DNA of 64,000 nucleotides from Vulcanisaeta thermophila (GTDB lineage: Archaea; Thermoproteota; Thermoprotei; Thermoproteales; Thermocladiaceae). The translations under genes and the position numbers were made by a program. The stretch lies in NCBI RefSeq assembly GCF_001748385.1, contig NZ_BCLI01000004.1, positions 62,001 to 126,000 on the forward strand, given 5' to 3'. This document shows, in pieces, positions 184 to 38,243 of this stretch. Below the pieces are notes generated by a model. That model was not told where the DNA came from, searched no databases, and was given only the letters and a program-made list of their open reading frames with translations. Position 1 is the stretch's first letter, and every line of letters begins with the position of its first letter.

Positions 184-322
184 TCCCTCAACCACTTTAG
201 GAATTTCCCAAATCATGACACCTGGAGTTTAAGTCCCCTCTCGATCCTTAGTGGGCTTGTATAATTCCCTCCCTCCACGGAAGGGTGAGTTTTGATTATT
301 AAATGTGTATGGTATAGCCGCG

Positions 323-368
323 CCGGAGGTGCCCCTTTCACTGAGCCGTGGCCACGGCCCTCCGGGGC
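323..368 (+). ncRNA. GC-rich nested hairpin element, copy 1
   Basis: CCGGAGG (323-329) pairs perfectly with CCTCCGG (359-365) and encloses a 15-nt left-hand loop plus an inner hairpin GCCGTGGCCACGGC (345-358). A second copy with the same architecture and nearly the same loop text lies at 37958-38000, where one outer-stem pair differs in a compensatory way (G-C here, T-A there). It may be a small structured RNA, or a protein-binding or mobile DNA element. The strand is a guess because the hairpins are near-palindromic. Confidence 0.4.
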
Positions 369-387
369 CCTTTATCCTTCACCCTTC

Positions 388-398
388 TGGTTTAAATT
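388..398 (+). promoter_or_regulatory. TATA-like box for the RmlD-like gene
   Basis: TTTAAAT at 391-397 lies 22-29 nt before ATG 417 and about 55 nt before ATG 450. It fits transcription starting near 420, giving a leaderless start at 417 or a short leader to 450. Confidence 0.4.
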
Positions 399-449
399 CC
401 TTACATCCCCATACTAATGCTTTTAATTGGGTTTTTGGGTTTTGGGTTG

Positions 450-22107: not shown

Positions 22108-22201
<94 letters not shown>

Positions 22202-37868: not shown

Positions 37869-38243
37869 ACTGAAACCACTGGTTAATTATCAATTATGCG
37901 GTTTTTAAAGAAGGCGGTTGTTATTTTAAGTGAAGCGTGGGTTGTATGACAGGGGGACCTGACGACACCCTTCATTGTGCCGTGTCACGGCCCTCAGGGG
38001 TCTAGTGTTGTGGTGGTTCCTCATTTATATTCCTTAATTTATCAATGCTACCGTGAATAACCATGTATTAGTGATTATGGTGCATGTGCCTCATTCTACA
38101 TAATCCTATATCCACCACCCATGGATATGCTAGGTGTCCTAACCCGCCTCATTCACGTGGTAATCCTCCATGGGCTTGTTAACTCTCACGTGGTGATTAT
38201 AATCCTGAATTTTAAAATACGGTTAAGGCCTCTATTAGGTTCT
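37869..38243. other. Gene-free 375-bp interval with structured element
   Basis: No gene found. It contains the minus-strand TATA-like CTTTAAAAACC of the secreted-protein gene (about 37900-37910) and the second copy of the nested hairpin (37958-38000). Two CACGTGGT-containing repeats, one followed closely and one at a distance by AATCCT, lie between about 38154 and 38211. The remainder shows nothing further that I can name. Confidence 0.5.
37958..38000 (+). ncRNA. GC-rich nested hairpin element, copy 2
   Basis: Outer arms CCTGA (37958-37962) and TCAGG (37994-37998) enclose ACACCCTTCATTGT-like loop text and the inner hairpin GCCGTGTCACGGC (37979-37991), followed by CCCTCAGGGG. It aligns with copy 1 at 323-368 through the loop, inner hairpin and 3' arm. 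One outer pair has changed on both sides (G-C to T-A). Confidence 0.4.

What the first reader, a model, noticed from the sequence alone, without database searches (positions are those of the whole stretch)
323..368. Repeated nested hairpin in two distant intergenic regions
Seen: the element at 323-368 and one at 37958-38000 share a loop of the type CCCTTTCACTGA/CCCTTCATTGT, the inner hairpin GCCGTG-NN-CACGGC, and the 3' arm CCTC(C/A)GGGG. The outer stem differs by a paired change (G-C to T-A), a sign that pairing is maintained, although one other pair is a mismatch in copy 2. Flanking genes differ. It could be a small structured RNA, an operator, or a miniature mobile element.
Basis: partly seen in the sequence, partly recalled or inferred. 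Interest (0 to 1): 0.6.

Follow-up and report, generated by a model that had tools for sequence, protein, structure and literature searches.

The report
Vulcanisaeta H/ACA-like guide RNA pair
The two hairpins are genes, read from the opposite strand, for two small RNAs of the archaeal H/ACA-like kind; one carries a complement of about 18 letters to the 23S ribosomal RNA and is the counterpart of a small RNA known from Pyrobaculum, so this is a solid new member of a known kind rather than something new in principle.

Summary
Both elements are real, but they work on the minus strand and with a different fold from the one proposed. Each is a predicted 60-65 nt RNA whose TATA box lies 26-27 nt upstream of the stem. 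A hairpin with a kink-turn (L7Ae-type) is followed directly by a single-stranded guide and an ACA box.
Copy 2 (37943-38002, -) has a guide, GUCAGGUCCCCC(U)UGUC, complementary to 23S rRNA. It points at one uridine (own LSU 1934, E. coli 1775), the clear best of 622 rRNA uridines. Ten orthologs (five in Vulcanisaeta, five in a sister genus) keep the guide and the kink-turn while the stems change by compensatory pairs. It is the counterpart of Rfam PyrR206 (full-length match, below the cut-off) and of Pyrobaculum/Thermoproteus sequences with nearly the same guide.
Copy 1 (306-370, -) is the genome's only PyrR204-like hit. In the PyrR204 register it points at LSU 2055 (E. coli 1911, helix 69), but that pairing alone is not significant.
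Unusual point: copy 2 seems to have no 5' guide, so pseudouridylation is likely but not shown.

The parts
37943..38002 (-). Copy 2: predicted sR206-like H/ACA-like RNA, 60 nt (stem foot to ACA box)
   Evidence: Ten orthologs; Rfam PyrR206 model 1-60/60 on the minus strand, 22.1 bits, gathering 46
37964..38002 (-). Copy 2 kink-turn hairpin
   Evidence: 7 of 14 pairs with changes on both sides, 95.7% of cells paired, no shuffle reaches it; model R1 finds this place and the genus orthologs
37948..37963 (-). Copy 2 guide GUCAGGUCCCCCUGUC, complementary to own 23S rRNA 1914-1933, next to U1934 (E. coli 1775)
37943..37945 (-). Copy 2 ACA box, 18 nt after the stem
   Evidence: CAUACA here, CAAACA in the Vulcanisaeta orthologs; less regular in the sister genus
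38024..38033 (-). Copy 2 promoter: GGAA plus TATAAA; first T is 27 nt before the stem
   Evidence: spacing compared with leaderless genes
306..370 (-). Copy 1: predicted sR204-like H/ACA-like RNA, about 65 nt
   Evidence: Rfam PyrR204 model 5-53/57, 27.5 bits, gathering 71; the only PyrR204 match in the genome, E 0.001
328..370 (-). Copy 1 kink-turn hairpin (C stem GCCGUG/CACGGC, bulge AGU, tandem GA)
   Evidence: Sequence; aligned to the PyrR204 kink-turn. RNAfold alone prefers another fold
322..329 (-). Copy 1 guide core CCUCCGGC, candidate target own 23S U2055 (E. coli 1911)
   Evidence: not significant alone (123 of 1000 shuffled guides do as well)
391..400 (-). Copy 1 promoter: GGAA plus TTTAAA; first T is 26 nt before the stem

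Best explanation
Both elements are minus-strand genes for archaeal H/ACA-like small RNAs. From a TATA promoter the RNA starts at the foot of a hairpin holding a kink-turn that L7Ae should bind, and Cbf5/Nop10/Gar1 should assemble on it (inferred). The unpaired 3' tail is the guide. Copy 2 pairs over about 17-18 nt with 23S rRNA, so that U1934 (E. coli 1775) sits at the top of the stem, in the place of the uridine isomerised by Cbf5. Copy 1 is an sR204-like guide, most likely for U2055 (E. coli 1911). Shown by sequence: the kink-turn, compensatory pairs, promoter spacing, guide conservation and rRNA complementarity of copy 2, and similarity to Rfam PyrR206 and PyrR204. Inferred: expression, protein binding and pseudouridylation.
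For: Compensatory changes and the same kink-turn on wholly different stems in a sister genus, with exactly 8 nt between the kink-turn GA and the guide in all 11 sequences. Guide to rRNA: -36 kcal/mol against -30.3 for the best of 30 shuffles; U1934 scores 35, the next of 622 uridines 13, no shuffle of 1000 reaches it. Guide and target keep pairing across the order, with a matched A-to-G / U-to-C change in G031. Promoter spacing is kept. Rfam PyrR206 full length and PyrR204 on the minus strand. Free-standing gene with different neighbours. Cbf5 and L7Ae are encoded in the genome.
Against: No transcript or modification data. No 5' guide is seen, and PMC4652768 treats a 5' duplex as needed for activity. 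The ACA lies at 18-19 nt, not the 14-15 nt of canonical H/ACA. Rfam scores are below the curated cut-offs. The target of copy 1 is not significant alone. No exact-guide ortholog was found in two 99% complete genus-mates, G004 and G011.
Confidence: 0.8

Rival explanations
1. The RNA is an L7Ae-anchored antisense RNA that pairs with pre-23S rRNA to control its folding (it competes with the rRNA's own GGGGACCU/AGGUCCCC helix) and does not guide pseudouridine formation.
For: No 5' guide; a very long one-sided duplex; the guide resembles the rRNA's own downstream strand AUAGGUCCCC.
Against: Guide placement directly next to a uridine and the 8-nt spacing follow the H/ACA pattern; the PyrR206 relatives are classed as H/ACA guides.
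Confidence: 0.3
2. Box C/D sRNA guiding 2'-O-methylation of 23S rRNA.
For: CUGA and AUGAUG look like D and C boxes in some orthologs.
Against: The boxes are not conserved, their order is D-hairpin-C, and no D box follows the guide.
Confidence: 0.04
3. Plus-strand operator or miniature mobile element.
For: Two copies with a shared palindrome.
Against: The proposed outer stem is broken in orthologs; no further copies; the flanks are unrelated; promoter and Rfam strand point to the minus strand.
Confidence: 0.03

Closest known systems
Rfam RF02804 PyrR206 (Pyrobaculum sRNA sR206)
   Same: Model starts at the stem with no 5' guide, has a kink-turn hairpin, a guide GUC-GGUCCCCCUUG for the same 23S site, and an ACA end.
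   Different: Copy 2 has one more A in the guide (GUCAGGUCCCCC), other stem sequences and a score of 22.1 against a cut-off of 46.
Rfam RF02802 PyrR204 (Pyrobaculum sRNA sR204)
   Same: Copy 1 shares the kink-turn and the register of the guide (CCUCCGGC against (C/U)CCCCGGC), pointing at the same helix-69 uridine.
   Different: Copy 1 lacks the 5' guide GAGU and scores 27.5 against a cut-off of 71.
Canonical archaeal H/ACA sRNA (PMC4652768)
   Same: Kink-turn, about 10-layer stem, 3' guide next to the target uridine, ACA box.
   Different: No lower stem, no 5' guide seen, ACA at 18-19 nt instead of 14-15.

Membership tests
Archaeal H/ACA-like sRNA (Pyrobaculum sR203-sR210 type) | Single hairpin with embedded kink-turn | tested here: met
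   (copy 2); alignment (copy 1)
Archaeal H/ACA-like sRNA (Pyrobaculum sR203-sR210 type) | About 10 layers between kink-turn GA pair and target uridine | tested here: met
   GA plus exactly 8 nt in 11 of 11 sequences; copy 1 in the same register
Archaeal H/ACA-like sRNA (Pyrobaculum sR203-sR210 type) | Lower stem truncated, ANA/NCA box downstream | tested here: met
   No lower stem; ACA 18-19 nt after the stem in most
Archaeal H/ACA-like sRNA (Pyrobaculum sR203-sR210 type) | Single-stranded 5' guide region (described as general, not universal) | tested here: inconclusive
   TATA spacing leaves no room for one, but the PyrR206 model also starts at the stem; the true 5' end was not measured
Archaeal H/ACA-like sRNA (Pyrobaculum sR203-sR210 type) | Binds L7Ae/Cbf5 and forms pseudouridine | not testable with these tools
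   Only the presence of the Cbf5 and L7Ae genes was checked
Rfam PyrR206 (RF02804) as delimited by its curators | Score at or above the gathering cut-off of 46 bits | tested here: not met
   22.1 bits; filed as a counterpart, not as a member of the family as delimited
Rfam PyrR204 (RF02802) as delimited by its curators | Score at or above the gathering cut-off of 71 bits | tested here: not met
   27.5 bits
Canonical archaeal H/ACA sRNA | Lower stem of 7-9 bp and ACA at 14-16 nt | tested here: not met
   No lower stem; 18-19 nt
Box C/D sRNA | Conserved C (RUGAUGA) and D (CUGA) boxes, guide ending at a D box | tested here: not met
   Boxes not conserved; none after the guide

The most novel reading that the evidence does not exclude
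A one-armed H/ACA-like RNA, without 5' guide and lower stem, uses a single 3' duplex of about 18 bp with 23S rRNA, the target itself replacing the lower stem, either to direct Cbf5 to E. coli position 1775 or to act as an rRNA folding chaperone. This design would be ancestral to Thermoproteales rather than special to Pyrobaculum.
Probability: 0.4. Interest if true: 0.55.

Novelty: new member of a known kind. Interest (0 to 1): 0.36.

Why it matters
H/ACA-like guides were described as specific to Pyrobaculum (PMC4652768). These loci carry two of those families into Vulcanisaeta (one of them also into a sister genus), tie copy 2 to one 23S site kept across the order, and point at a guide that seems to do without the 5' half that current rules require. 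That makes the rule testable in culturable Vulcanisaeta and Pyrobaculum strains.

Tried and rejected
Plus-strand H/ACA pocket with targets such as GAGG-UN-CAGTGAA or GAGA-UN-ACGATGAT: no convincing rRNA match. DNA similarity search with copy 1: no clear homolog, and its tail matched only unrelated places. tRNA targets for copy 1: the tRNA-Leu 5' arm pairing was judged chance. mRNA targets of copy 1: only 12-mers. Covariance model R1 outside the genus: weak hits not pursued. Matches of the strict pattern in one Oscillospiraceae and two 'Euryarchaeota' contigs look like chance. The paper that described the Pyrobaculum RNAs (Bernick 2012) is not held, so its published targets for sR204 and sR206 could not be checked.

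Full report
What is there. The window lies in a Vulcanisaeta-group genome: the genus-mate G003 has a contig of the same length, 228136, as Vulcanisaeta distributa JCM 11216. The two hairpins are present as described, and their exact core occurs nowhere else in the genome. They lie between the long ORFs around them.

Strand and fold. A similarity search with copy 2 found related loci in five genus-mates, and the alignment showed the real anatomy on the minus strand. Read 5' to 3' it is: outer stem, GA, C stem, tiny loop, C stem, 3-nt bulge ending in U, GA, outer stem. This is a kink-turn. On five distinct sequences, 7 of 14 pairs change on both sides and 95.7% of cells pair, with no shuffle reaching this (loop lengths were evened out for that alignment).

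Guide. Right after the hairpin follows GUCAGGUCCCCC(U)UGUC. It is antisense to 23S rRNA around own positions 1914-1933. The duplex is -36 kcal/mol; 30 shuffled guides reach at best -30.3. With the guide placed directly below a uridine, U1934 scores 35 and the next of 622 uridines 13; no shuffle of 1000 reaches it. The aligned E. coli position is 1775.

Distant orthologs. Searching relatives for GTCAGGTCCCCC gave the rRNA itself plus five loci in a sister genus (G013, G016, G019, G022, G024). Their stems are wholly different, yet kink-turn, promoter and guide are the same. In all eleven sequences exactly 8 nt separate the kink-turn GA from the guide, and stem pairs such as CG, GC, UA and GU replace one another. 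A scan of 84,980 genomes with a strict pattern found only four named Vulcanisaeta and five Thermoproteales/Thermoproteota MAG loci besides three chance hits. Neighbouring genes are shared among the other Vulcanisaeta but not with this genome, nor with the sister genus, so the RNA is a free-standing gene.

Promoter and 5' end. A TATA element lies 26-28 nt before the stem in copy 1, copy 2 and most orthologs, although the spacer sequence changes. In 1026 long ORFs of this genome the first T of TTTAAA/TATAAA/TTTATA peaks at 29-30 before ATG, so transcription should start at the stem foot, leaving no room for a 5' guide. In Pyrobaculum sR204 loci the TATA is about 4 nt further from the stem, which fits their 4-nt GAGU (inference).

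Known relatives. At relaxed threshold Rfam gives PyrR206 over its full length for copy 2 and PyrR204 for copy 1, both on the minus strand and both below the curated cut-offs. The Pyrobaculum/Thermoproteus PyrR206 loci carry GUCGGUCCCCCUUG, which pairs with the same 23S site with one bulged U; in G031 a target A-to-G change is matched by U-to-C in the guide. PyrR204 loci carry GAGU before and (C/U)CCCCGGC after the hairpin, which fits GGCCGGGGG-UA-ACUC, i.e. E. coli U1911 (pairing read by eye). Copy 1 has CCUCCGGC in the same register and is the only PyrR204 hit in the genome, but it lacks GAGU, and its target alone is not significant.

Mechanism. The class assembles L7Ae, Cbf5, Nop10 and Gar1 and isomerises uridines (PMC4652768, PMC3608112, PMC7991803); Cbf5 and L7Ae are encoded here. 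I expect copy 2 to place U1934 at the Cbf5 active site. The doubt is the missing 5' duplex, which PMC4652768 treats as important for activity; the alternative is a chaperone role on pre-23S rRNA.

Verdict.

Noticed in passing
L174:8765-8805 (G000:C1:327165-327205, - strand): Another near-perfect kink-turn hairpin, GCCCAGCGGAGUCCCUGAAUCCAGGGUCCGUGAUGCUGGGC, with a 10-layer stem and tail CCGUCGGGCGCCUCCCC. A similar 5' CUA and tail occur at L320 (G033), so it is a candidate H/ACA guide.
   Followed up: partly
L183:14863-14903 (G000:C4:240363-240403, + strand): Kink-turn hairpin with TATA at 27 nt and tail GGGUUACCCCAACCCGGCC, which resembles L309/L310 in another genus and could touch the E. coli 1911 site.
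   Followed up: partly
L081, L082, L109 (genus g2): GTCAGGTCCCCC lies inside a conserved inverted repeat GAGTCAG-GTCCCCCGAA-CTGACTC with otherwise unlike flanks in three genomes; no kink-turn. Meaning unknown.
   Followed up: no
L311 (G010:C15:1429-1482, - strand): A genus-mate carries a more PyrR204-like RNA with the 5' GAGU and a tail containing CCUCCGGCC.
   Followed up: no
G004 and G011 (99% complete genus-mates): No copy of the copy-2 guide besides the rRNA itself: loss or divergence inside the genus.
   Followed up: no
L072, L077 (G048, another family of the class): Weak hits of the hairpin model R1 that look like kink-turn hairpins.
   Followed up: no
window 22108-22201 (-): tRNA gene of 91-94 nt whose anticodon ARAGORN did not call, perhaps because of an intron.
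   Followed up: no
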